64,000 bases of DNA, taken from positions 1-64,000 of the forward strand of contig CALHOU010000029.1 of the NCBI GenBank assembly GCA_938035945.1, given 5' to 3'. The position numbers and the translations under genes were made by a program. The notes beneath the pieces are model-generated. The model did not search any database, had not been told where the DNA came from, and saw nothing but the letters and a program-made list of their open reading frames with translations. This stretch comes from an uncultured Granulosicoccaceae bacterium. GTDB lineage: Bacteria > Pseudomonadota > Gammaproteobacteria > Granulosicoccales > Granulosicoccaceae. Of the stretch, positions 6,107 to 18,842 are shown in pieces; the first letter of the stretch is position 1; every line of letters starts with the position of its first letter.

Positions 6107-7873
6107 ATGAGCAAGACTGATAGCAACGATAAGCGACTTTTAACCACTGCCACTTATGGCGGTGGTTTGTCGTTTGACGGAGACGAATCAGCGGCGACAG
6201 CAGACTCCTACACACAGACACAAACCAAGAACAGCATTTGGACGGTGGCTGCGTTGGTGGTTGCTGGCATTGTTTGCTTACCACTATTATCGGTTATTTG
6301 GTTAGCTTTTTTCCCGGAAGAAAATATTTGGCCCCATCTTTATAAAACAGTTCTATCTACCTATGTACTAAACACTATCATCTTAATGTTTGGCGTAGCC
6401 GTTGGCACCTTGGTCATTGGCACCGGTTGCGCGTGGCTAGTAACTCACCATGAGTTTCCCGGAAGAAAACTATTCAACTGGGCACTACTTTTGCCATTTG
6501 CTGTGCCAGCCTATGTCATCGCCTATGTGTACACCGACTTGCTGGAATTTGCAGGCCCAGTGCAAACGCTCCTGCGAGACGCGTTCGGTTGGCAACTGGC
6601 CAGTGATTACTACTTCCCTTCGATTCGCACACTGCCCGGCGCAATTATCATGATGGTGTTGGTGCTTTATCCGTATGTGTATTTGTTATCGCGTGCAGCG
6701 TTTTTAGAACAATCCGCATCCATTGCCGAAGCTGCGCGTTCGCTCGGTGTAAGTCGCAGAGCTCGCATTTTTAAAGTCGCCTTTCCGATGGCACGCCCAG
6801 CCATTGTCGTCGGCTTGTCTTTGGTGATGATGGAAACCTTGAATGATTACGGCACCGTGGATTACTTTGCCGTGCGAACACTGAGCGCAGGCTTGTACGA
6901 TGTTTGGCTTGGTATGAATAACCTCGGCGGTGGCGCGCAAATAGCGACTTTGTTATTGATATTTGTAATGGTATTGATCGGTTTGGAAAAGTCGAGTCGG
7001 CGTAACCAACAAAACTTCCAACCCATGTCGAGTCGTTTTAGACCTACCGAACGAAGCCGGTTACAAAAATATTGGGCGCTTGGCGCAAGTACGTTTTGCG
7101 CGATTCCTGTTGTGCTTGGGTTTATTATTCCAGCCTGGGTTCTGTGTAGTTACACCATCTCCTATTTTGAAGAATCTTGGAATGCCAGCTTCTGGCAAAG
7201 TGCGCTGCATAGCATAGGACTATCCGCGGTTGCAGCTATCACGGCAATCGCTGTGGGCATTCTACTGAGCTATAGCAAGCGTCTGCACCCAACACGAAAC
7301 GTGCGCTGGAGCGTTGGACTGGCAAGTTTAGGCTATGCGGTACCTGGCGCTGTATTAGCGATTGGCATCATCATTCCATTTGCGGCATTCGATAACACAG
7401 TGGATGCGCTAGCGGAACGTTTTTTTGGCGTATCTACTGGTCTTCTGCTCAGTGGTACCGTATTCGCTTTAGTGTTTGCCTACACCGTACGTTTTCTTGC
7501 CATGGCTTACGGTGCAATCAATAGCAGCATGCAAAAGATCAGTCCGCACATGGACGATGCCGCCCGCTCATTGGGACACTCACCCGGTACTATTTTGCGA
7601 AAAGTGCATCTACCATTGGTTCGTGGCGGCATCCTAACCGCGGGGCTTGTGGTTTTTGTTGACTGTATGAAGGAGCTACCGGCAACCCTTGTGCTGCGAC
7701 CCTTTAACTTTGATACCTTGGCCACCCAAGTCTATCAATTTGCCTCCGATGAGCTACTCGGGCAAAGTGCTATTTATGCATTGTTGATCGTGCTTGTGGG
7801 TCTAGTGCCAGTCATCTTACTCAGTACACGCATAGATCGATCGCGTGAGCTAAGCGACGAATCAAGGTTTTAG
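6107..7873 (+). CDS. Fe(III) ABC transporter permease, fused two-domain (FbpB/SfuB type)
   Basis: A 588-residue membrane protein made of two homologous permease domains, as in FbpB/SfuB iron transporters. Each half has an EAA-type loop that docks the ATPase: [20 protein letters not shown] near residue 205-225 and [20 protein letters not shown] near residue 485-505. About twelve membrane spans are expected. A hydrophilic N-terminal stretch of about 45 residues precedes the first span. No ATP-binding subunit follows; the next gene is convergent and overlaps the end by 12 bases. The ATPase must therefore be encoded elsewhere or shared with another system. Confidence 0.88.
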
Positions 7874-8623
7874 TTTATAACCTGTTTTGAACATCGCCCA
7901 AACGATGACCATACAAGCAAACAAGAACAACAATATCATTGACAGACTAACACCGACACTTACGTCCGACACTTCAAAGAAGCTCCAGCGAAATCCGCTG
8001 ATTAAGTACAACACTGGATTTAGCAAGGATATTTTTTGCCAAAATTCCGGCAACATATCGACCGAGTAAAAACTTCCACCAAGAAACACCAAGGGCGTAA
8101 TGATTAAAGACGGAATAAGCTGAAGCTTTTCAAAATTATCCGCCCACAAGCCAATGATAAATCCAAATAGACTAAACGACACACAGGTTAGAAGAAAGAA
8201 CCCTATCATCCAAAACGGATGGGCTATGCGTAAATCGACAAAGAAGGTAGCCGTTATTAAAATTAGCACGCCTAAAATAAACGATTTTGTTGCAGCAGCA
8301 CCAACATAGCCAATCAATATTTCGAAAAATGAGATGGGCGCTGACATAACCTCATAAATGGTTCCGGTAAATTTTGGGAAGAAGATGCCGAACGATGCAT
8401 TAGATATACTTTGCGTTAACAGGCTCAGCATCATCAAGCCAGGCACAATAAAAGCGCCATAGGCAACATTATCTACCGACTCAATGCGTGAGCCAATCGC
8501 CGACCCAAACACCACAAAATATAAAGCCGTTGAAATAACCGGGGCGGCTACGCTTTGTAATAGCGTGTTTCGAGTACGACGCATTTCTGCGCGGTAAATG
8601 GCTTTGACTGCTTCTATGTTCAT
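7862..8623 (-). CDS. ABC-2 type exporter permease (YadH-like)
   Basis: Membrane subunit of an ABC-2 family exporter, 253 residues with about six membrane spans (for example [14 protein letters not shown] and [20 protein letters not shown]). The [16 protein letters not shown] segment followed by [12 protein letters not shown] is characteristic of the YadH/NodJ branch. It overlaps the upstream ATPase gene by four bases and so forms a two-gene exporter with it. The substrate is not predictable from sequence. The 3' end overlaps the convergent iron permease gene by 12 bases. Confidence 0.88.
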
Positions 8624-9555
8624 GCGTCGGCCTTTACTATGTCAACGAAAATATCTTCCAGCGAACTCTGCGCGGTATTTAAATCTTTTATCGATAACCC
8701 GGCTTGCGATAAGTCACTCAGTAGCGCGGTCATACCGGTGCGCTCTTTGCGTGCATCAAATGTATACGTTACCTTCGTGCCATTTGCAGACAACTCTAAG
8801 CCGTAGTCGCTCAGTTGCGCCGGTATGGCATCAATACTGTTTTTAAGTTCAACTACCAATTGCTTCTTACCCAACTTTTCCATCAAGGCGGTTTTTTCTT
8901 CCAACTCAAGCAGCTCACCGCCACTGATAACACCGACCCTATCGGCAATCTCTTCAGCCTCTTCTATGTAGTGGGTAGTAAGAATGATGGTTACCCCGCT
9001 TTGTCGTAGACGTTCGACGATGTTCCACATATCTTTGCGAAGCTCTACATCTACGCCCGCAGTGGGCTCATCTAAGAATAATATGCGAGGTTCGTGCGAT
9101 AAGGCCTTTGCAATAAGTACGCGTCGTTTCATTCCGCCAGAGAGTTGTTGCACCATGCTATCTTTCTTATCACCTAACGTGAGTTCATTGAGTAGTTCTT
9201 CTAGGAATTTGTTATTGGGGGACTTACCAAACAAGCCACGGCTAAACGCTACAGTGTTGCCAACTTTTTCAAACGCGCCCAAAGTAAGCTCTTGTGGAAC
9301 CAGACCGATAAGTTCACGGGTTTTACGAAAGTCTTTGATTATGTCGTAGCCCGCTACGGTGACCGAGCCGGAACTGGGGGACACCAAACCACAAATAGTG
9401 GATATAAGCGTAGTTTTGCCCGCGCCGTTCGGCCCGAGTAAAGCCAGGATTTCACCTTCACGAATATCCAGATCAACGCCTTTTAAGGCCTGATGACCGT
9501 TGTCGTAGGTTTTGGTCAACCCTTTGATACTTATTATTGGAGTAGATTCAGTCAT
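8620..9555 (-). CDS. ABC exporter ATP-binding protein (YadG-like)
   Basis: ATPase partner of the ABC-2 permease downstream. It contains Walker A (GPNGAGKTT), Q-loop (VPQELT), signature (LSGGMKRR), Walker B ([12 protein letters not shown]) and the switch histidine ([16 protein letters not shown]). After the ATPase core of about 225 residues there is a C-terminal domain of about 80 residues, seen in many YadG/CcmA-type proteins. The ATG at 9555 (MTEST) was chosen because the frame upstream only offers a GTG at 9570 adding five residues, with no better ribosome site. It starts shortly after the stop of the pdsS-like kinase gene (9579), which is on the same strand. Confidence 0.9.
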
Positions 9556-9578
9556 ACCCCATTGTCGCACACGAGAAC

Positions 9579-11738
9579 TTAAAGTGGGATGATCATGCCT
9601 ACTTGCACGCCTTTGTCAGTGTTGCGCACAGAGACGCGCCCACGATGGGCTTCTGCAATCATTCTGACAATGTACAGACCTAAACCCAAGTGCAACTCGC
9701 CATCATCGTCGGTTCGATCAGAGAACATGGGGTCAAACAGTTGTGACTGGCGATCAAGGTCGATGTGCGCACCATTGTTGGCAACGGCCATGCGTACCAT
9801 CAGTCGGCCGTTTTCATAAAAGGATTCGAGCATCAGTGTTACTTGCCCGTCAACGGAGAAGCCAACCGCATTGTTAACCAACTTATCGAATGCCTGCTGC
9901 AGCAGTTCTGCTGCAGCATAGACTTCGACTACCTCGGGTTCTGATGATGCATATTTAACGCGCGCTATGATGGTGGCATTTGGATAGACCTGCTGGTAGC
10001 GCTGCAAAGAGCCACGAAACCAATCGAGTAAATCCACCGTTTGCATTTGCGATTGCTGCACCGTTTGCTCCAATCGCGTAGATTCAACCAAGGCACGAAT
10101 GATCGCACTCAGTTGATCAGCACCGCCACTGGCTCTGTCCATCAAGCTAACGGTTTCAGCGTCGAGCCGGTCCCTGTCCATATTTTCAATCGATGTTTTA
10201 ACCACGCTAAGTGGCGTGCGTAATTCGTGCGACAAGCGACTCGACAGGGCTTCTAAATACTTGGTGTAATTCGCCGATCGCTCTAGCAGCGCCGTGAGGT
10301 TTCTCGACAAGTCCCCTATTTCATCTTTTGCATCACTCTGTGGCAACCCCCTTACTCGACCATCATCGGCCACCGCTCTGGTCGCAAGCTTTGACAAAGT
10401 GCGGATACGCATCGACAACATACTGGCGTAGACCAACAACACAAGACCTGCGAGTAAGCTTACAAGCGTAAGTAGACTAAACAATCTGGCAACACGACTC
10501 GATGAATAGGCCGACGCCAAGTCTTCATTCGATTCGAACAATAAAAAACCATTGGGCTCATCTCCGCCTAATGGCACCAGTGTACCCAACACGACATCGC
10601 GTTCTTGCGTGACATAGTGTTTGGTTTCTGCCTGACCCTGCGCTAAGGCATCGACTTCATCAACTGGTATGTGCAATCGGTTCATTAATTTAAAGGGTTG
10701 ATCCCGTACTTCGTTGTCGGCTACAAAGTAGGCAAAGATACGAAACAACACCGCATTGAAAAAACCCCTTAGTGCAGGGTCGTATTCATACTCGTCTTCG
10801 GTTTTCTCATACAAGGAATTGATATCGGACAACAGGCGCCCCTGACGATCGAACAATCGCGCTCGCGTGCCAATGGTAACCCAGGGTTTAAGTCGCTCAT
10901 CAGCAACACTTGAGGCTAGAAAAATATGACCGGGCAAACTAACACTTTTACCTAAGTGCAAGGCCTTCATAGCCGCCGGGTCTAAAGTACCTAACCAACG
11001 TTTACGCTCCTCACCTTGTTGATCGACATCGACAAAGGCAATGCCAAAAATGGACGATGCCGGTGGTAGAGGCAAACTGATTTCTAACTGAAAACCACGT
11101 TGCGTGGCCACCCAGAAACCGTTATAGCGTGAAAGGTGCCTGCCGGCCTTTTGCCCATCTACATTGATAGAACCACTGGTGCCTGAGACAGGACCTGGTG
11201 CAACAGTTCGGAATAAAGCATGTTCGAGTTGGCCCTTATTATTGAGTACCATTATTTCAATGGCATCACCATTAACCAACATGGCTTGCTGGTCAACGGT
11301 TTCACCTTCTGCTAAATCGAACCTTGGCGTGGGCGGCTTATGGTAGATAACTTTGTTATCAGTTACTTTGGCAAATAAATACAGCCGGTTGTGTTTTGCT
11401 GCTAAACGAACGCTAAGCCAGTCACGCTCATTGCTATAGGAGAACACAGGCGCACGTAAATTGCCCCACTCATCGTCATAGCCATCGACAAACATGGGGA
11501 AGTTGGCACGCTCTGCATAAAGATCAGTTTCAGTTGCGGGTGTGCGACTGTTTTGCAGCTCGTCACGCAGTGCTTGAGATTCAGCCAGCGCAATACGCGC
11601 ATTGGCAACTTTTAGCGATTGCGCATCAACGCGTGTTTGTCGCAGTGATTCGTCGAGTTGCTTAACACTTTGCCAACCGATCACAGGTACTGCCAGCGTC
11701 AGCGTACCTGCTAGCAGCATTTGCGTACGCAAATTCAT
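9579..11738 (-). CDS. pdsS: Sensor histidine kinase of the dedicated-sortase type (PdsS-like)
   Basis: Membrane sensor kinase, 719 residues. An N-terminal membrane anchor (residues 5-22) is followed by a large periplasmic region. Within it residues about 75-230 ([11 protein letters not shown], then [20 protein letters not shown]) resemble a carbohydrate-binding/DOMON-like beta sandwich. A second span ([16 protein letters not shown]), HAMP-like linker, dimerisation domain with the phospho-accepting His504 in SHELRTP, and an ATPase domain with N-box (DKLVNNAV) and G-box ([15 protein letters not shown]) follow. The size, the N-terminus ([20 protein letters not shown]) and the partner regulator match the proteobacterial dedicated sortase kinase family as I know it. 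The regulator stops four bases upstream, so both are one transcript. Its cognate signal is unknown. Confidence 0.8.
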
Positions 11739-11741
11739 TGC

Positions 11742-12455
11742 TTAATAGTCCAGACCTTCCACCCAACGGTAACCAAGACCATAGACAGTTTGAATACAAT
11801 TAAACTCAGCATCAATACCGATGAATTTTTTACGAATCCGTTTGATGTGTGCTGTGATTGTTTGATCGTCCAAAACCACGTTAGCTGCATCCATTAGTTG
11901 TTGCCGACTTTTTACTTGTCCGTGTTGGCTTGCCAGACAACTGACTAACCAAAACTCGGTGACGGTTAACTCGACCGGTCTATCACGCCATAGGGCGACC
12001 AAGCGTTCCTGATCAATCGACAGCGGACCAATCGTTTGCACCGTTGGCGTTTCAGACTGGCTGAGCACGTCAACTCGGCGTAACAGCGTGTTAACGCGCG
12101 TAATGATTTGCGCAAGGCTTATGTCTTTGGTGAGGTAATCATCCGCGCCTAAACGCAATCCAGAGATAACATCCAACTCGCTGTCGCGAGCGGTTAAGAA
12201 CAGTATTGGCAAGCGCTCTGATAAGTTGCGCAAGGACTGGCACAGCGAGAAGCCTGCTTCACTGTCGTTGCCCAAACCAATATCAATGATAGCTAAATCC
12301 GGCATTCTCGCCTTCACCGCGTTTAGAGCGGCTTCAGCAGTGGCAAAATCCTGAACGGCATAACCGGCCTTTTCCAGTGCTAGGCGATAGTTATCGCGCA
12401 GCCCAGGTTCGTCCTCAACCAGAACAATAGTGCGGCTTGATTTTTCAGTTGTCAT
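11742..12455 (-). CDS. pdsR: OmpR-type response regulator of the dedicated-sortase type (PdsR-like)
   Basis: DNA-binding response regulator of 237 residues. The receiver domain has acidic residues Glu14-Asp15, phospho-acceptor Asp58 (AIIDIGLG), and conserved Thr and Lys (FLTARD, YLTKD). The winged-helix domain is distinctive: LTVTEFWLVSCLASQHGQVKSR then DDQTITAHIKRIRKKF and ending in VYGLGYRW, which fits the PdsR family rather than PhoB/OmpR of general use. It lies directly upstream of the kinase on the same strand and is divergent from a VIT-domain protein gene 97 bases away. In known systems the regulator controls sortase and substrate genes; here only a short substrate-like gene is left to be controlled. 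Confidence 0.85.
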   Translation of the reverse strand: MTTEKSSRTIVLVEDEPGLRDNYRLALEKAGYAVQDFATAEAALNAVKARMPDLAIIDIGLGNDSEAGFSLCQSLRNLSERLPILFLTARDSELDVISGLRLGADDYLTKDISLAQIITRVNTLLRRVDVLSQSETPTVQTIGPLSIDQERLVALWRDRPVELTVTEFWLVSCLASQHGQVKSRQQLMDAANVVLDDQTITAHIKRIRKKFIGIDAEFNCIQTVYGLGYRWVEGLDY

Positions 12456-12552
12456 AATTGGTCAGAATTGCTCCCATTTGAAGCGCTTTAGCGCCAGTGT
12501 GTCGTCGCATTCCACAGGTTTAATGGTCACATCAAAACCAACAGAGCCTGAC

Positions 12553-13266
12553 ATGCATCATACCGATTACAGCAACAATCTTCGCAAAGCACAGCACAAG
12601 TCAATTAAAAATTCGTCACCTATTCGCGAATCGCGTGATTATATTGATGATAAATCCAAGGATTTAATGCGAGCCGCCGCAGCCGCTGTGCTGGTACTGG
12701 TCGCACTATTACAGATGGATCCAGCGAATGCGCAGGATACTCTCGACATGCCCGGCTACGGCAGCTTGCAGCTGTCCGGCGCTAAAGCACAAAACTTGTC
12801 CAGCCAATTGAAAATGGTTATACACGATGAGCAAGTTAGCTTAATCGTCAAGCAAACGTTTAATAACCCTAGCGATACAACGCGCACGGGTGAGTACGTC
12901 TTTGCGTTACCGGAAAATGCGTTGATTTTAAATTGGGAGATCAGTCGCATGGCTAGCTCATGTGATAAAACCAAGCCCAGCGAGTGTCATCTGCAAACCA
13001 TTACGCATGTAAATCCGAGTAGCGATCACGTTGATTCGGCGTCCAACATACTCACCATCCCGCTGGGTGAACTGCGACCTGATCAACAGCTGAGTATAAA
13101 ATTGAATATCACTTTACCGACCGAAGCCAACGATACCCTACTGGCAGCCACTTTGCCGCCAGGCGATTTGCAAAACCAAGCCGAGCATAGCCAGCTAAGG
13201 ATTGCCGCTGAGTTGATTGGCTCAGTCGCATCCAGTCAACCCTTAGGTGTCATGCAACCGCTATAA
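12553..13266 (+). CDS. Short VIT-domain protein, probable truncated sortase substrate
   Basis: A 237-residue protein (ATG at 12553; an alternative ATG at 12667 starts right at the signal sequence). A long hydrophilic N-terminus precedes a hydrophobic signal (AAAAAVLVLVALL) with a probable cleavage after ANA. The remainder resembles the vault/inter-alpha-trypsin (VIT) domain: SSQLKMVIHDEQVSLIVKQT, FNNPS, GEYVFALPENA, and a late strand ILTIPLGELRPDQQLSI. In the marine proteobacterial sortase target proteins this domain is followed by a von Willebrand A domain, a long linker and a C-terminal LPxTG-like signal with membrane anchor. Here translation stops just after the VIT-like part and none of that remains. 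It is divergent from pdsR-like, as the target gene often is. It could be a decayed gene or a functional short variant. Confidence 0.65.
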   Translation: MHHTDYSNNLRKAQHKSIKNSSPIRESRDYIDDKSKDLMRAAAAAVLVLVALLQMDPANAQDTLDMPGYGSLQLSGAKAQNLSSQLKMVIHDEQVSLIVKQTFNNPSDTTRTGEYVFALPENALILNWEISRMASSCDKTKPSECHLQTITHVNPSSDHVDSASNILTIPLGELRPDQQLSIKLNITLPTEANDTLLAATLPPGDLQNQAEHSQLRIAAELIGSVASSQPLGVMQPL

Positions 13267-13274
13267 TCCTATGC

Positions 13275-14465
13275 ATGAAATTTGCCTCCCTAACTGCCCG
13301 CGTAAAGCCCTCTGATGACCTTGAAAGCGACCCGTGGCAAGTACACTCCATCGCCTGCGACAGAATAGACGCCGGAGAGGACATTGTTGTACTGAGTATT
13401 GGCCAAGAGGCCGATGAAGTCACACCTAGCATCATTGTTGATGCCGCCGTTGATAGCCTTCGGCAAGGCGATCATCACTACACCGACTGCGAAGGTACAC
13501 TGAGCCTTCGAACCAGTATCGCGCACTACCACCAATCACTCACAGGGCAATTCACCAAACCCGAGAACTGCATTACGTTTGCCGGTGCTCAAAACGCATT
13601 GTTTTCAGCGGCGCAAGTGTTGCTCGAAACCGGTGATGAAGTGATTTTGTCCGAACCGTATTACACGACCTACGCGGCTACCTTTGGCGCATCGGGTGCC
13701 ACGCTTGTTAGTGTGCCTGTAACCAAACAACACAATTATCAACTGCATGTCGATGACATTGAAGCCGCCATCAATTCTAAAACACAAGCCATTGTTCTAA
13801 ATTCTCCGAACAACCCAATGGGTACTTGCTATAGCCGCACTGAATTTGAGCGTATTGTGCATTTGTGTTTGGAGCACGATATTTGGCTCATTTTCGATGC
13901 GGTGTATATCAATATCGTGGAAGTTGACCCCAAGGATTTACCGCACGCCATACCAGGCGTCGATCGCGTGCTTATAACCGTGAACTCTTTGTCGAAGTCG
14001 CATCGTATGACAGGTTGGCGTATGGGATGGATTGTGGCTCCGGTCGAAGTCACGCAAAACCTTGCGCATCTGTCAATGTGTATGCACTACGGTCTGCCCC
14101 CGTTTATCATGAAAGCTGCAGAAGTGGCAATCGATCGCGCAAGCGAAACACCTAAGTTAGTGCGCGACACCCTTGCGCGCCGTCGCGCGATGGCCTCACC
14201 TATTTTAAGCAAGATTCAAGGCGCTACGTTTCATGATTCGGGTCAAGGGATGTTTATGTTGATCGATGTATCGGAGCTGGGTATCAACGCCTACACCTTT
14301 GCCATGCGTTTACTCGACGACTACAAAGTGGCGGTTTTGCCTTGTGACGGCTTTGGTGCTGCAGGTAATCAGTTAGTGCGTATCGGCTTATGTGTGGATG
14401 ATTCAAAACTTGAAGATGCTTGCGAAAATATTGTTGCCTGTGCAGCTTCTTTTAACGCTGCATAA
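13275..14465 (+). CDS. PLP-dependent aminotransferase, AruH-like
   Basis: Class I/II (fold type I) aminotransferase of 396 residues. The pyridoxal phosphate lysine is Lys241 in NSLSKSHRMTGWRMGW. The substrate/cofactor positions NSPNNPMGT and the C-terminal RIGLCVDD region are readable. Along the whole length it resembles Pseudomonas arginine:pyruvate transaminase AruH (for example HYTDCEGTLSLR, FAGAQNALFS, EPYYTTYAATFGASGA). Closely related enzymes use aspartate or other amino acids, so the donor is not certain. It begins 8 bases after the VIT protein stop on the same strand but has no evident link to it. Confidence 0.85.
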   Translation: MKFASLTARVKPSDDLESDPWQVHSIACDRIDAGEDIVVLSIGQEADEVTPSIIVDAAVDSLRQGDHHYTDCEGTLSLRTSIAHYHQSLTGQFTKPENCITFAGAQNALFSAAQVLLETGDEVILSEPYYTTYAATFGASGATLVSVPVTKQHNYQLHVDDIEAAINSKTQAIVLNSPNNPMGTCYSRTEFERIVHLCLEHDIWLIFDAVYINIVEVDPKDLPHAIPGVDRVLITVNSLSKSHRMTGWRMGWIVAPVEVTQNLAHLSMCMHYGLPPFIMKAAEVAIDRASETPKLVRDTLARRRAMASPILSKIQGATFHDSGQGMFMLIDVSELGINAYTFAMRLLDDYKVAVLPCDGFGAAGNQLVRIGLCVDDSKLEDACENIVACAASFNAA

Positions 14466-14482: not shown

Positions 14483-15643
14483 TTATATTAACAAACCTTG
14501 TAACTTCGGCGTGTTGAACTTAGAAAAGCGGTTTTCTTCAATGCCAAACCAATCGCCTAACACGCGCTCATAAACACACCGATAATCCATCGTATAATCG
14601 GGGTCATCATTGATCAGCTTAGCTAAATCGGGCGCTGCACCATAAAGACCACCACGAACTTGTCCACCTGCCACAATATGCGGTGCTGCCGTACCGTGAT
14701 CAGTACCGCCGGATAAATTCTCCGCTGCACGGCGACCAAATTCTGAGTAGGTCATAATTAAAGTGTTGTCCCATTCACCATCGTTTGCCAATGCTCGGCT
14801 AAAACCGCTTATCCCATCCGATAAATTTGATAATAACTGCGCATGACGACGAACTTGATAATCGTGCGTATCGAAGCCGCCAAGTTGAACACGGTATATG
14901 GGTGTATCAACTCCCGCTCGAATTAGCCGAAGGACCTGAGCTAGCTGATCACCCAGACTGCCGCCAGGCAGTCGTTTCACCTTCGGTGCTTTTTGTAATT
15001 TGGCCGATAAGCTGTCCATTGTATGATGCAGCTCGTGCATTTTTCCGGCAACCAAATCCAGTGCGGTGTTGTATTGTTCGCCACCAGCCGGCAGAGTAAC
15101 GCTGGTAGATTCGATTTGACTGGTGGATTCAAGCGACATCCATCGTCCACCATCGGTATTAAATATATTTAAACCACCTTTTAAACTAATACCATGTGCA
15201 TCGCTGATTTGACGACCAAGCTTGTGCTGTATATCGTGTGTCATCCAACCTGTCCGACCAGCTTTAGCCCCATCACCACCAGATTCCCACAATGCGATTG
15301 AACTAAAGTGCGAACGATTAGGTTGTGGATAACCCAGGCCCTGTAGCCAAGCAAGCTCGCCTTTATCCCAAAGATTCATCATTGGCTCTAACGATGCATG
15401 CATGGCCATGTCATTGTCGATACCGATAACATCTTGTTGCGTTAAACCAATCGTTGGTCGAAGACGATGATAATGATCATTGCGAATCGGAACTAAGGTA
15501 TTCAAGCCATCGTTAGCACCGGCGAGTTCAACCAAAACGAGCCTGCGCCCCGAGGCAGCCGCTTTAGCGGCAAGTACGCGTTGCATTGGTGATAAAGCCA
15601 ATGATAATGCGCTTATCGTTTTGAGTAGTTCTCTTCTGTTCAT
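14483..15643 (-). CDS. DUF1501 family protein, Tat-type signal
   Basis: Secreted protein of the DUF1501 family (sulfatase/phosphatase-like fold), 386 residues. The N-terminus has a twin-arginine type signal (NRRELLKT then a mildly hydrophobic stretch ending LAAKA). Family features are LVLVELAGANDGLNTLVP near residue 35-52, MAMHASL near residue 80, and MTYSEFGRRAAEN followed by GTDHGTAAPHIV near residue 290-315. DUF1501 proteins are nearly always encoded next to a DUF1800 protein, as here, and the pair is thought to act in the periplasm. The biochemical role is unknown. The stop lies 17 bases from that of the convergent aminotransferase gene. Confidence 0.88.
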   Translation of the reverse strand: MNRRELLKTISALSLALSPMQRVLAAKAAASGRRLVLVELAGANDGLNTLVPIRNDHYHRLRPTIGLTQQDVIGIDNDMAMHASLEPMMNLWDKGELAWLQGLGYPQPNRSHFSSIALWESGGDGAKAGRTGWMTHDIQHKLGRQISDAHGISLKGGLNIFNTDGGRWMSLESTSQIESTSVTLPAGGEQYNTALDLVAGKMHELHHTMDSLSAKLQKAPKVKRLPGGSLGDQLAQVLRLIRAGVDTPIYRVQLGGFDTHDYQVRRHAQLLSNLSDGISGFSRALANDGEWDNTLIMTYSEFGRRAAENLSGGTDHGTAAPHIVAGGQVRGGLYGAAPDLAKLINDDPDYTMDYRCVYERVLGDWFGIEENRFSKFNTPKLQGLLI

Positions 15644-15678
15644 TGTCTCATCGCTTAGTAAAGTGCCTTACCTGTTGT

Positions 15679-18261
15679 TCAATAAACTTGATAGACCGGG
15701 TGGCTCAGCACAGTATTTAACTGTTGTTCCGCGATTTTTGTAACATCTTCAGATGCATTTTCGAACGCAATCGAACTGAGTTCTGGGAATACGTCCGCCG
15801 GTACGCCACCAATCAGCAACTCTGGTAAGGACAGCTCTGACTGTTCTATAACCCTAATCAAGCCTTGTAAATTCGCAACGGCAACTTGAGGCTCGGGTAA
15901 AACGGTATCGCGATCAATCGCGGCAGGGTAAGTCGCGTCAATCGTGAATTGTTGAGCATCGGCCAGAAAAGCGCTGTCATCGAATGACGCTTGCTGCGAC
16001 GACATTCTATCGCGCCATAGTTCTACAGAACGGATATACCTATCTTGTTGTAACTGTTTCGACAAGGTATCCACAAACAGCGGCAAACTGGCCATAAGGC
16101 TTTTTATCAGCTCCTGTTCTGTTGCACTCAAACTATCGAAATGGCACTGCAGCTGCTCATCGCTACGTCGCGTTAATGGAAATACCAGACTCTTTTCCTG
16201 AGAAGTGGTATCGACCCATGCGCACTCAGGCCATTGTTCGAAACAATCCGGCCAGCAACCAAAGGAATCAATTTTCAATGTGATGTCTTCGTCGCGCCTA
16301 CTGTTAACAGAGAAACTAAGCGTGTGAAATTGCTGCGTTGGGGTTTGTACATTGGCCAAGGCAATGGTGGCGTTCAAATTCTTTTTGTTTCTATTACCCC
16401 ATAACACGTTAATCGAAGAAGCAGAATAGCCTTCCGGTCTTGGCGTTATCGCTTGTGATTGACCGCGCAGGTCAAAGCGTATAGTTCCAGCACAATACAA
16501 ACGTCCTGCATCTCGGTTATTCTTGGGCGGACAAGCGGACTGTTGTTGTGCAGCAACTGAACTTATTCTTGTGCCATCGAACAGAACGGAATCTACGAAA
16601 AGATTACGATCACCTGATTTACCAGCAGCGTCATTCAAAAATTCCACTTTTAATTGCTTAGCTTTACTTACAATGTCAGCGGCTGGAAAAAAAGATTCAT
16701 CCTGCCACGCCAATTGATTGAAGTTTTGCATTTTACCGAAGCTTTGCGTGTCGTAGCCGAATGCTAACTCGCGCACCTCACTTGTCCACAACAAACGCTT
16801 CTGTTCATCGAGCAAAGATAATTTGTACTGCGGTGCTCCTTCATAGAAATGCCCGGCAACTCGAACTTGCAAAGGTGCGGTACGCGTATCGCCTGCTTGC
16901 ATAGAGACATCCGTCGACATCATCATGCTACCCGAGGCAACTCGCATCATCATTTTTTCATCCGAACCTGTGTTCTTCGTCGATGCCAATAGCGATTGCA
17001 AGGCCAGTTGTCGATTTAGAAGCCGACCGGGTATCACATACGCAGCACCCTCATCCCAGCCAGACACATTCGGTGGTGCGAATAAATCCATGCCAAGTAG
17101 CGCATGCAAGGCAGGCATTTGAGTCCAGGCTTGTTTAGGAAATTCTAGCGAGCGTGCTGTGCCAATTAACAGAGTGGCTGGGGATTTTATAATCGAGAGT
17201 CTGTTCTCTGCACTCCAAAATGCTTCACTACTGATAACCGCTTTGTACAAAGCTAACAAGTCATAGTCTGAGGCACGAAACAGCTCGGCATGAATACGCA
17301 CAAACTCGGCATCGGGTGCGCTATCCGAAATAAACGCGTGCCAGAATTTTTTAACCAAGTGCTCGGCTGCGGCTGGTTGATCCAATATAAGATCAATCAA
17401 GGCATCGCCATCATGCGGTCCAGTTTGACCGAACAGCGTTTTATCTTGCATGTCACGCCGATAACCATGAATACGAAACGTAAAATTACGCGTCTCGCTA
17501 ACACCGTAACCGGTCAAGGCCCTCGCCGCTTCTTTAACCGTCGTCTCATCATAGTTACCTTCGCCTAAGGTAAACAGTTCTAGCAGTTCACGTGCTAAGT
17601 TCTCGTTCGGCTTACCCTTCTGATTGGATTGATTATTCAAATACAACAGCATGGCGGGGTCGCGAATTATCGACTTGAGTAGCGCACGATAAGAGCCTGT
17701 GCCCTTTTCTCTGAACAATTGGTTTTGTTTTGCAACTGCAAGGCTACGACGATTGAGACCTTCATAGCTCGTGGCAAAGTGATCGTGCCAAAACAACACC
17801 AAACGTTCAGTCTGAGGCGAAGATGTTTGCAGCATGTTGTTAATCCACCAACGACGTAGCTCAACAATCTCTTGATCGCGTTGCCGATCAAATGCTTGTC
17901 GTTGCTGTATCGGAAGATCGCGACGCGTCCAATAATGCGGAGCCGGTGCGTCAACCCAAGCGGGCATGTTTATTTCGGGTTCTACATTAATTGAGTCAAC
18001 GATTGCGTTTATTGCATCAATACGCGAAAGCCGGCGCATGTGCATCAATTCCGCGGATGTAGCACCAAAACCAGTTCGGCCCAACAGGTGTCGCGCATCC
18101 GCCAAGTCCATAGGCTGGTTTAACCAACCGTACCCATTGGTACGATCAGACGATGCTTTGGCGTGTGCTTGGCTGGCGAGGAATGAACACGCAAGCAGCC
18201 AAACGCACAGCATGAAGCTCAGTGGCTTAACGGCGGCATTGCTAGTAGTCGGGATACGCAT
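15679..18261 (-). CDS. DUF1800 family secreted protein with carbohydrate-binding-like insert
   Basis: Large exported protein; from the chosen ATG at 18261 it is 860 residues. That start has an AGGA ribosome site eight bases upstream and gives a proper signal peptide (VKPLSFMLCVWLLACSF, cleavage near AHA). The frame continues upstream to 18384, but this would overlap the divergent DUF4864 gene. The DUF1800 core is recognisable from ARHLLGRTGFGAT, LFWHDHFATS, NQKGKPNENLARELLELFTLGEGNY and ALTGYGV, then LNRQLALQSLL. Between about residues 485 and 690 lies an insertion with strands such as QLKVEFLNDAA and DRNLFVDSVLFDG, like calcium-dependent xylan-binding (CBM36/60-type) modules. The typical DUF1800 C-terminus follows. 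The partner DUF1501 gene starts 35 bases downstream. Confidence 0.85.
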   Translation of the reverse strand: MRIPTTSNAAVKPLSFMLCVWLLACSFLASQAHAKASSDRTNGYGWLNQPMDLADARHLLGRTGFGATSAELMHMRRLSRIDAINAIVDSINVEPEINMPAWVDAPAPHYWTRRDLPIQQRQAFDRQRDQEIVELRRWWINNMLQTSSPQTERLVLFWHDHFATSYEGLNRRSLAVAKQNQLFREKGTGSYRALLKSIIRDPAMLLYLNNQSNQKGKPNENLARELLELFTLGEGNYDETTVKEAARALTGYGVSETRNFTFRIHGYRRDMQDKTLFGQTGPHDGDALIDLILDQPAAAEHLVKKFWHAFISDSAPDAEFVRIHAELFRASDYDLLALYKAVISSEAFWSAENRLSIIKSPATLLIGTARSLEFPKQAWTQMPALHALLGMDLFAPPNVSGWDEGAAYVIPGRLLNRQLALQSLLASTKNTGSDEKMMMRVASGSMMMSTDVSMQAGDTRTAPLQVRVAGHFYEGAPQYKLSLLDEQKRLLWTSEVRELAFGYDTQSFGKMQNFNQLAWQDESFFPAADIVSKAKQLKVEFLNDAAGKSGDRNLFVDSVLFDGTRISSVAAQQQSACPPKNNRDAGRLYCAGTIRFDLRGQSQAITPRPEGYSASSINVLWGNRNKKNLNATIALANVQTPTQQFHTLSFSVNSRRDEDITLKIDSFGCWPDCFEQWPECAWVDTTSQEKSLVFPLTRRSDEQLQCHFDSLSATEQELIKSLMASLPLFVDTLSKQLQQDRYIRSVELWRDRMSSQQASFDDSAFLADAQQFTIDATYPAAIDRDTVLPEPQVAVANLQGLIRVIEQSELSLPELLIGGVPADVFPELSSIAFENASEDVTKIAEQQLNTVLSHPVYQVY

Positions 18262-18368
18262 GGAAGACATCCTAAATTGTTTTTTGCCGCTTTTACATCC
18301 AAATTGCCGGAATGACACGTATGAGATAGGGTATCCCAATGCATTGTCGCTGAAATGAGGCTGAAACC

Positions 18369-18842
18369 ATGAGAAACATCGCACGCTTTTTCATATCTTT
18401 ATCTCTTCTGTCAACGAGTATTGTCTTCGCCGACAGCAACGCACCGACCCCGAGCACCGAGCTTTCGCCTGATCAAGTGGTGCTAATCGTGGTTGACGCC
18501 TTAAAACACAATGACCCAGCCAATGCAGACAACGGCATTGCTAAAGTCTATGAATTTGCATCACCGGGTAATAAATCTTCAACCGGTCCGATTGAGCGTT
18601 TCACGCGCATGATCAAAAGCGGGTTCTCAAACATGCTCAACCATGTTGACAGTGAATTTGGTCCGATGGAGGTTAATGACAAAACGGCGCTACAGGCCGT
18701 TTGGTTAACCACCAGCACAGGTCAGGAAGTTGGTTATGTGTTTCAAATTGGCAAGCAATCAGGAGGTGAATTCGATGGTATGTGGATGACCGAATCTGTA
18801 TGGCCAATCGGCGAGAGAAAACCGCAAGGACAATCGATATAA
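18369..18842 (+). CDS. DUF4864 family exported protein
   Basis: A 157-residue protein with a signal peptide (FFISLSLLSTSIVFA) and a single DUF4864-like domain: VVLIVVDALKHNDP, GIAKVYEFASP, RFTRMIKSGFSNMLNH, and a C-terminal FDGMWMTESVWPI. Proteins of this family are related to NTF2-like folds and their role is unknown. GAGG eight bases before the ATG is a good ribosome site. It is divergent from the DUF1800 gene and ends at a strong bidirectional hairpin facing folD. Confidence 0.8.
   Translation: MRNIARFFISLSLLSTSIVFADSNAPTPSTELSPDQVVLIVVDALKHNDPANADNGIAKVYEFASPGNKSSTGPIERFTRMIKSGFSNMLNHVDSEFGPMEVNDKTALQAVWLTTSTGQEVGYVFQIGKQSGGEFDGMWMTESVWPIGERKPQGQSI

What the first reader, a model, noticed from the sequence alone, without database searches (positions are those of the whole stretch)
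9579..13266. Dedicated-sortase regulators without a sortase: truncated VIT substrate
The kinase and regulator look like PdsS and PdsR, normally found with a class-specific sortase and an LPxTG-type VIT/vWA target. Here the divergent neighbour has only signal plus VIT-like domain (237 residues), with no vWA domain, no LPxTG and no anchor, and the next gene is an unrelated aminotransferase. Either the system decayed here, or the pair now regulates something else, or sortase and full target lie elsewhere.
Basis: partly seen in the sequence, partly recalled or inferred. Interest (0 to 1): 0.7.

Follow-up and report, generated by a model that had tools for sequence, protein, structure and literature searches.

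The report
Sortase regulators outliving their sortase
A regulator pair that in related bacteria sits beside a surface-protein-anchoring enzyme and its substrate has been kept here after the enzyme and most of the substrate were lost, and a DNA site shared with the relatives predicts what the pair still controls.

Summary
Kinase and regulator are the family's PdsS/PdsR orthologues. The divergent gene (ATG 12553-13266, 237 aa) has a long leader, a membrane helix and a degenerate VIT domain, but no vWA and no sorting signal. No class GN sortase or anchored target was found in the 86%-complete genome.

Relatives explain it. Eight congeners carry full target + sortase at this exact place, between pdsR and the same aminotransferase. 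The window's five-genome subclade has lost the sortase and most of the target. Other lineages lost them independently.

The pair is probably not idle. A tandem 10-bp repeat next to pdsR lies about 100 bp before the target start. A matrix trained only on pdsR-adjacent sites finds it before all 7 unlinked target-sortase cassettes of relatives (300 permuted matrices reach at most 2 of 7) and before targets or pdsO-like genes in other families. It also precedes a second, unlinked unknown gene in 16 of 16 genomes examined, including this one (contig C135).

So local decay is right, but the regulators appear to keep a regulon. The short gene's leader is conserved better than its mature part, which suggests a selected small protein. 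DNA binding and function are inferred, not shown.

The parts
9579..11738 (-). pdsS-like sensor histidine kinase, 719 aa
   Evidence: TIGR03785 full length, 394 bits; H-box SHELRTP and ATPase motifs conserved in the aligned genus orthologues; syntenic orthologues beside target + sortase in relatives
11742..12455 (-). pdsR-like OmpR-family response regulator, 237 aa
   Evidence: TIGR03787 325.6 bits; 87-92% identical in the subclade, pN 0.06-0.10 at pS 0.75-0.85
12456..12475 (+). candidate PdsR operator, two 10-bp repeats AATTGGTCAG AATTGCTCCC, directly upstream of the pdsR start codon and 97 bp before the short VIT ATG
   Evidence: only exact AATTnnTCnnAATTnnTC in the 4.6-Mb genome; same element and spacing before targets, unlinked cassettes and a second gene in relatives
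12553..13266 (+). short leader-helix-VIT gene, 237 aa, what remains of the sortase target gene
   Evidence: position, MHHT start and VIT homology to intact targets; Pfam VIT; model; leader under protein-level selection
13275..14465 (+). aminotransferase class I/II, ancestral 3' neighbour of the target-sortase cassette
   Evidence: PF00155 194 bits; follows the sortase in intact relatives
8620..9570 (-). ABC transporter ATPase, 8 bp after pdsS, probably same operon
   Evidence: PF00005; follows pdsS in nearly all genus genomes
7862..8623 (-). ABC-2 transporter permease
   Evidence: NF011648 233 bits, over cut-off; linked to pdsRS across the genus

Best explanation
The window holds the regulatory half of a Pds-type dedicated sortase system in a Granulosicoccaceae bacterium, after loss of its effector half. 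PdsS is expected to sense an envelope signal and phosphorylate PdsR (from family knowledge). PdsR is inferred to bind tandem 10-bp repeats about 100 bp upstream of the genes it controls. In the ancestor the divergent gene was a VIT/vWA surface protein followed by its class GN sortase; in the window's subclade the sortase and most of the target were lost (shown by comparison). The pair was kept because it still has a regulon (inferred): the short leader-VIT gene, perhaps with the aminotransferase 8 bp behind it, and an unlinked gene of unknown function on contig C135; in several relatives also a replacement target-sortase cassette elsewhere in the genome.
For: Intact target + sortase at the same place in eight genus genomes. 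Tree: the window's subclade (support 100) is sister to intact G005/G016 (84), so this is a loss. Matrix trained on pdsR-adjacent sites only puts the best site of the whole locus 46-101 bp before the target in 7 of 7 unlinked cassettes; 300 permuted matrices reach at most 2. Same element before targets or pdsO-like genes of other families. Same element before the second gene in 16 of 16 genomes examined. PdsR strongly conserved in the sortase-less subclade.
Against: No binding or expression data. The pdsR-adjacent site overlaps the presumed pdsR ribosome-binding site, so part of its conservation there could be translational (not so at the other sites). A pattern scan of the genome shows no overall excess of sites (26 against 20 reversed). 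Clade C and G005/G016 lack the second gene. In G008/G019 the pdsR-adjacent site is lost and the second-gene site is weak (5.0-7.8 bits).
Confidence: 0.72

Rival explanations
1. Simple decay: target and sortase were deleted, the short VIT gene is a rotting remnant, and the regulator pair has nothing left to control.
For: Mature part of the short gene is poorly conserved (24% identity between G000 and G012) and its length varies from 82 to 263 aa across the subclade.
Against: PdsR pN 0.06-0.10 at saturated pS; the leader's QMDPANA is invariant in protein but varies synonymously; operator kept in all five genomes and before a second gene.
Confidence: 0.13
2. A complete target-sortase cassette of the unlinked type lies in the missing 14% of this genome and is what PdsRS controls.
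For: Three of the four closest relatives have one, each with the operator; the genome is 86% complete.
Against: Neither this genome nor its sister G022 (82% complete, support 99) shows one; missing it in both by incompleteness alone has a chance of about 2.5%.
Confidence: 0.12
3. Kinase and regulator belong to a general two-component family and have nothing to do with the sortase system.
For: Both score below the curated cut-offs of TIGR03785 and TIGR03787.
Against: Full-length match, 279 bits above the next kinase model and 146 above the next regulator model; syntenic orthologues stand beside target + sortase and also score below the kinase cut-off; shared operator with target-sortase cassettes.
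Confidence: 0.03

Closest known systems
Proteobacterial dedicated sortase system (NCBIfam TIGR03784 class GN sortase, TIGR03785 PdsS, TIGR03787 PdsR, TIGR03788 target, TIGR03789 PdsO)
   Same: Orthologous kinase and regulator; divergent gene with VIT homology at the target's position; same operator spacing
   Different: No sortase, no vWA, no sorting signal, no PdsO over cut-off; extra unlinked regulon gene; ABC exporter in the pdsRS operon
Unlinked (type II) target-sortase cassettes of Granulosicoccaceae (L106-L112)
   Same: Carry the same operator about 100 bp before the target; sister clade of the linked type
   Different: Full target and sortase, unlinked to pdsRS, mostly in different neighbourhoods; none found in the window's genome
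VIT/vWA protein with GlyGly-CTERM-like tail on G000:C5
   Same: VIT + vWA architecture, TIGR03788 228 bits
   Different: Tail GGNGGGALSFEMLLLLPFLMLAGLRLTRRQ with a rhombosortase over cut-off on C165; not linked to pdsRS

Membership tests
PdsS (TIGR03785) | score over the curated cut-off (612 bits) | tested here: not met
   394 bits; no kinase of 39 relatives passes, sortase-linked ones included, so the cut-off does not separate the two states here
PdsS (TIGR03785) | full-length architecture and syntenic orthology to sortase-linked kinases | tested here: met
   profile 1-703 of 703
PdsR (TIGR03787) | score over the curated cut-off (335.7 bits) | tested here: not met
   325.6 bits, ten bits short
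Marine sortase target (TIGR03788) | VIT + vWA + C-terminal sorting signal with anchor | tested here: not met
   VIT only; 19 bits against 551
Dedicated sortase system | class GN sortase (TIGR03784) in the genome | tested here: not met
   none by TIGR03784 or PF04203 in an 86%-complete genome; absence from the missing part not excluded
Dedicated sortase system | PdsO (TIGR03789), an optional member | tested here: not met
   only generic OmpA-type hits below the cut-off in the genus
PdsR regulon | tandem 10-bp repeat about 100 bp before the start codon | tested here: met
PdsR regulon | PdsR binds the repeat and changes transcription | not testable with these tools
   needs an experiment

The most novel reading that the evidence does not exclude
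After loss of the sortase the target gene was reduced to a PdsR-controlled small membrane or secreted protein with a job of its own, for example feedback on PdsS or a cue for the ABC exporter. This happened in the window's subclade (82-263 aa, conserved QMDPANA after the helix) and in parallel in another lineage (36-80 aa, conserved C-terminal helix YSLxILLxLGYVPG), both 97-114 bp after the operator.
Probability: 0.2. Interest if true: 0.75.

Novelty: new variant of a known kind. Interest (0 to 1): 0.52.

Why it matters
Gram-negative sortase systems of this kind are known almost only as computed families; I found no experimental paper on them in the held library. A candidate operator with fixed spacing makes their regulation directly testable and ties unlinked cassettes to their regulators. 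It also exposes a second conserved regulon gene that may hold the clue to what the system is for. The comparison further shows that the regulators, not the sortase, are the stable part.

Tried and rejected
Operator first modelled with an 11-bp period; the repeat is 10 bp. Whole-genome pattern scan of G000 with one mismatch gives 26 hits against 20 for the reversed control, so the pattern alone does not define a regulon; only sites at a conserved position before orthologous genes were kept. Empty-site test for the unlinked cassette in G000 was dropped because the cassette sits in different neighbourhoods in most relatives (only G002 and G021 share one). The contig C5 VIT/vWA protein as the missing target was rejected: GlyGly-CTERM-like tail and a family of its own. 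A structure of the C135 gene was not attempted because its sequence lies outside what the structure tool says it accepts. Literature searches found no paper on the system.

Full report
What is there. The window is contig C29 of a 4.6-Mb, 86%-complete genome whose closest named relatives are Granulosicoccaceae and Granulosicoccus genomes. Reading leftwards from 12455 are a PdsR-like regulator, a PdsS-like kinase and, 8 bp on, an ABC-2 exporter pair. Reading rightwards is a gene with a conserved ATG at 12553 that encodes 237 aa, then an aminotransferase 8 bp after its stop. The 237-aa protein has a basic leader, a hydrophobic helix followed by QMDPANA (a plausible signal-peptidase site, by eye), and a VIT-like domain that Pfam recognises over 47 residues only. 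Aligned with intact targets it keeps the first and last parts of VIT but lacks their central conserved stretch. AlphaFold nevertheless gives a beta-sandwich whose nearest solved structures are inter-alpha-inhibitor heavy chain 1, with low TM-score; the alignment included intact targets, so the model leans on them. There is no vWA domain and no sorting signal in it, and no sortase in the genome.

The locus in relatives. Eight genus genomes have an intact target (about 700 aa) and class GN sortase in exactly this place, divergent from pdsRS and followed by the orthologous aminotransferase. G023 has two further genes between sortase and aminotransferase. Four other genomes (G012, G014, G020, G022) have, like the window, a short gene (263, 90, 144 and 82 aa) at the target's position with the aminotransferase next and no sortase. 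G002, G009, G021 and L166 have a still smaller ORF there, and G008 and G019 have nothing between pdsR and the aminotransferase. On a tree of PdsR, PdsS and the ABC pair the window's five genomes form one clade (100) next to G005/G016, which are intact (84). At least three separate losses are needed.

The regulators kept a site. Next to pdsR lies a tandem 10-bp repeat, AATTGGTCAG AATTGCTCCC in the window (12456-12475). The start codon of the divergent gene lies 93-114 bp from its first base whether that gene is a full target, a short VIT protein or a tiny ORF. A weight matrix was built from 16 pdsR-adjacent sites only. Seven relatives carry a second type of target-sortase cassette, a sister clade to the linked type, without pdsRS beside it and mostly in different neighbourhoods. 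In all seven the best site of the whole 7.6-13-kb locus lies 46-101 bp upstream of the annotated target start on the same strand; 300 column-permuted matrices reach at most two of seven. The 46-bp case (G002) has an annotated GTG start that is probably too early; the next ATG gives about 100 bp. The element also occurs before targets in Cellvibrionaceae, Haliea, Dasania and others, and before pdsO-like genes where these stand divergent from pdsR. I read it as the PdsR operator; this is inference from position and conservation.

A second regulon gene. In G000 the pattern is exact only at the pdsR site. The next-best of the pattern sites by matrix, 22.0 bits on contig C135, lies 100 bp before a 209-aa gene with no significant Pfam or NCBIfam match. 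A genus scan with the pattern hit the same position before its homologue in eight more genomes, although the proteins of linked-type genomes are only 23-25% identical to it. A protein search then found the gene in 18 of 27 genus genomes. One of these was cut off at its start and one was not examined; of the remaining 16, all have the site, 15 at 91-121 bp before the start and one (G039) at 155 bp. Scores fall to 5.0-7.8 bits in G008 and G019, where the pdsR-adjacent site is gone. Seven of the 16 were reached by protein similarity rather than by the pattern. A 41-position window taken at random from these loci reaches 5 bits with frequency 0.006. This gives a reason for the pair to persist without a sortase.

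What happened to the target gene. In the window's subclade the leader is better conserved than the mature part: 63% against 24% identity between G000 and G012. The degenerate residues of QMDPANA are invariant in all five genomes yet every one varies synonymously, so selection acts on the protein there. The first codons (ATGCATCATACC) are instead invariant at DNA level and are shared with several intact targets. In the other lineage the small ORF keeps a C-terminal helix, with ten invariant degenerate residues all showing synonymous variation. The L166 genome, not used in building the matrix, has both operator and ORF at +100. I therefore think the short genes are made and used, but their function is unknown; feedback on PdsS is a guess.

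Is anything missing from this genome? Unlinked cassettes occur in three of the four closest relatives. G000 (86% complete) and its sister G022 (82%, support 99) both lack one; missing a present cassette in both has a chance of about 2.5%. A hidden cassette is possible but less likely than common loss.

Membership. By curated cut-offs neither kinase nor regulator passes, but no kinase of the genus does, those beside a sortase included. I call them orthologues of PdsS and PdsR by full-length match, synteny and tree. I call the locus a sortase-less remnant of a dedicated sortase system, not a member of that system.

Shown: gene content, synteny, losses, the conserved DNA element and its spacing, purifying selection. 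Inferred: that PdsR binds the element, that it activates rather than represses, and that the short proteins act. The operator overlaps the presumed ribosome-binding site of pdsR, which suggests autoregulation, also inferred.

Noticed in passing
L036:9288-11408 (G000:C5) and L231 (G000:C165): A full-length VIT/vWA protein with a GlyGly-CTERM-like tail, and a rhombosortase over cut-off in the same genome: this genome may route a VIT/vWA protein through rhombosortase instead of sortase.
   Followed up: partly
C-termini of targets in L088-L112 compared with L173-L224: The sorting signal looks like LPxTA in most other Gammaproteobacteria but LPxG(S/A)xGxDT in Granulosicoccaceae targets: a probable change of class GN sortase specificity.
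   Followed up: partly
G000:C135:23306-23932 (L144, L277) and homologues L276-L293: A family of 180-254-aa proteins without significant Pfam or NCBIfam match, each examined member preceded by the candidate PdsR operator.
   Followed up: partly
window 12553-12564 and the same position in relatives: First codons ATGCATCATACC are conserved at DNA level in the short gene and in several intact targets, unlike the rest of the leader; reason unknown.
   Followed up: no
L086, L092, L103, L166 (divergent from pdsR): A family of 36-80-aa ORFs with a conserved C-terminal membrane helix at +99 to +101 from the operator.
   Followed up: partly
L106-L112: Unlinked target-sortase cassettes sit in different neighbourhoods in most relatives, as if moved or transferred; no genome showed both cassette types.
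   Followed up: partly
L172-L226: pdsRS without a linked target or sortase is common in other families too, for example Rhodanobacter, Dyella, Luteibacter and Exilibacterium.
   Followed up: partly
window 14483-18384: DUF1501 and DUF1800 gene pair; the DUF1800 protein also carries a CBM60 match. It stays near the pds locus in many relatives.
   Followed up: no
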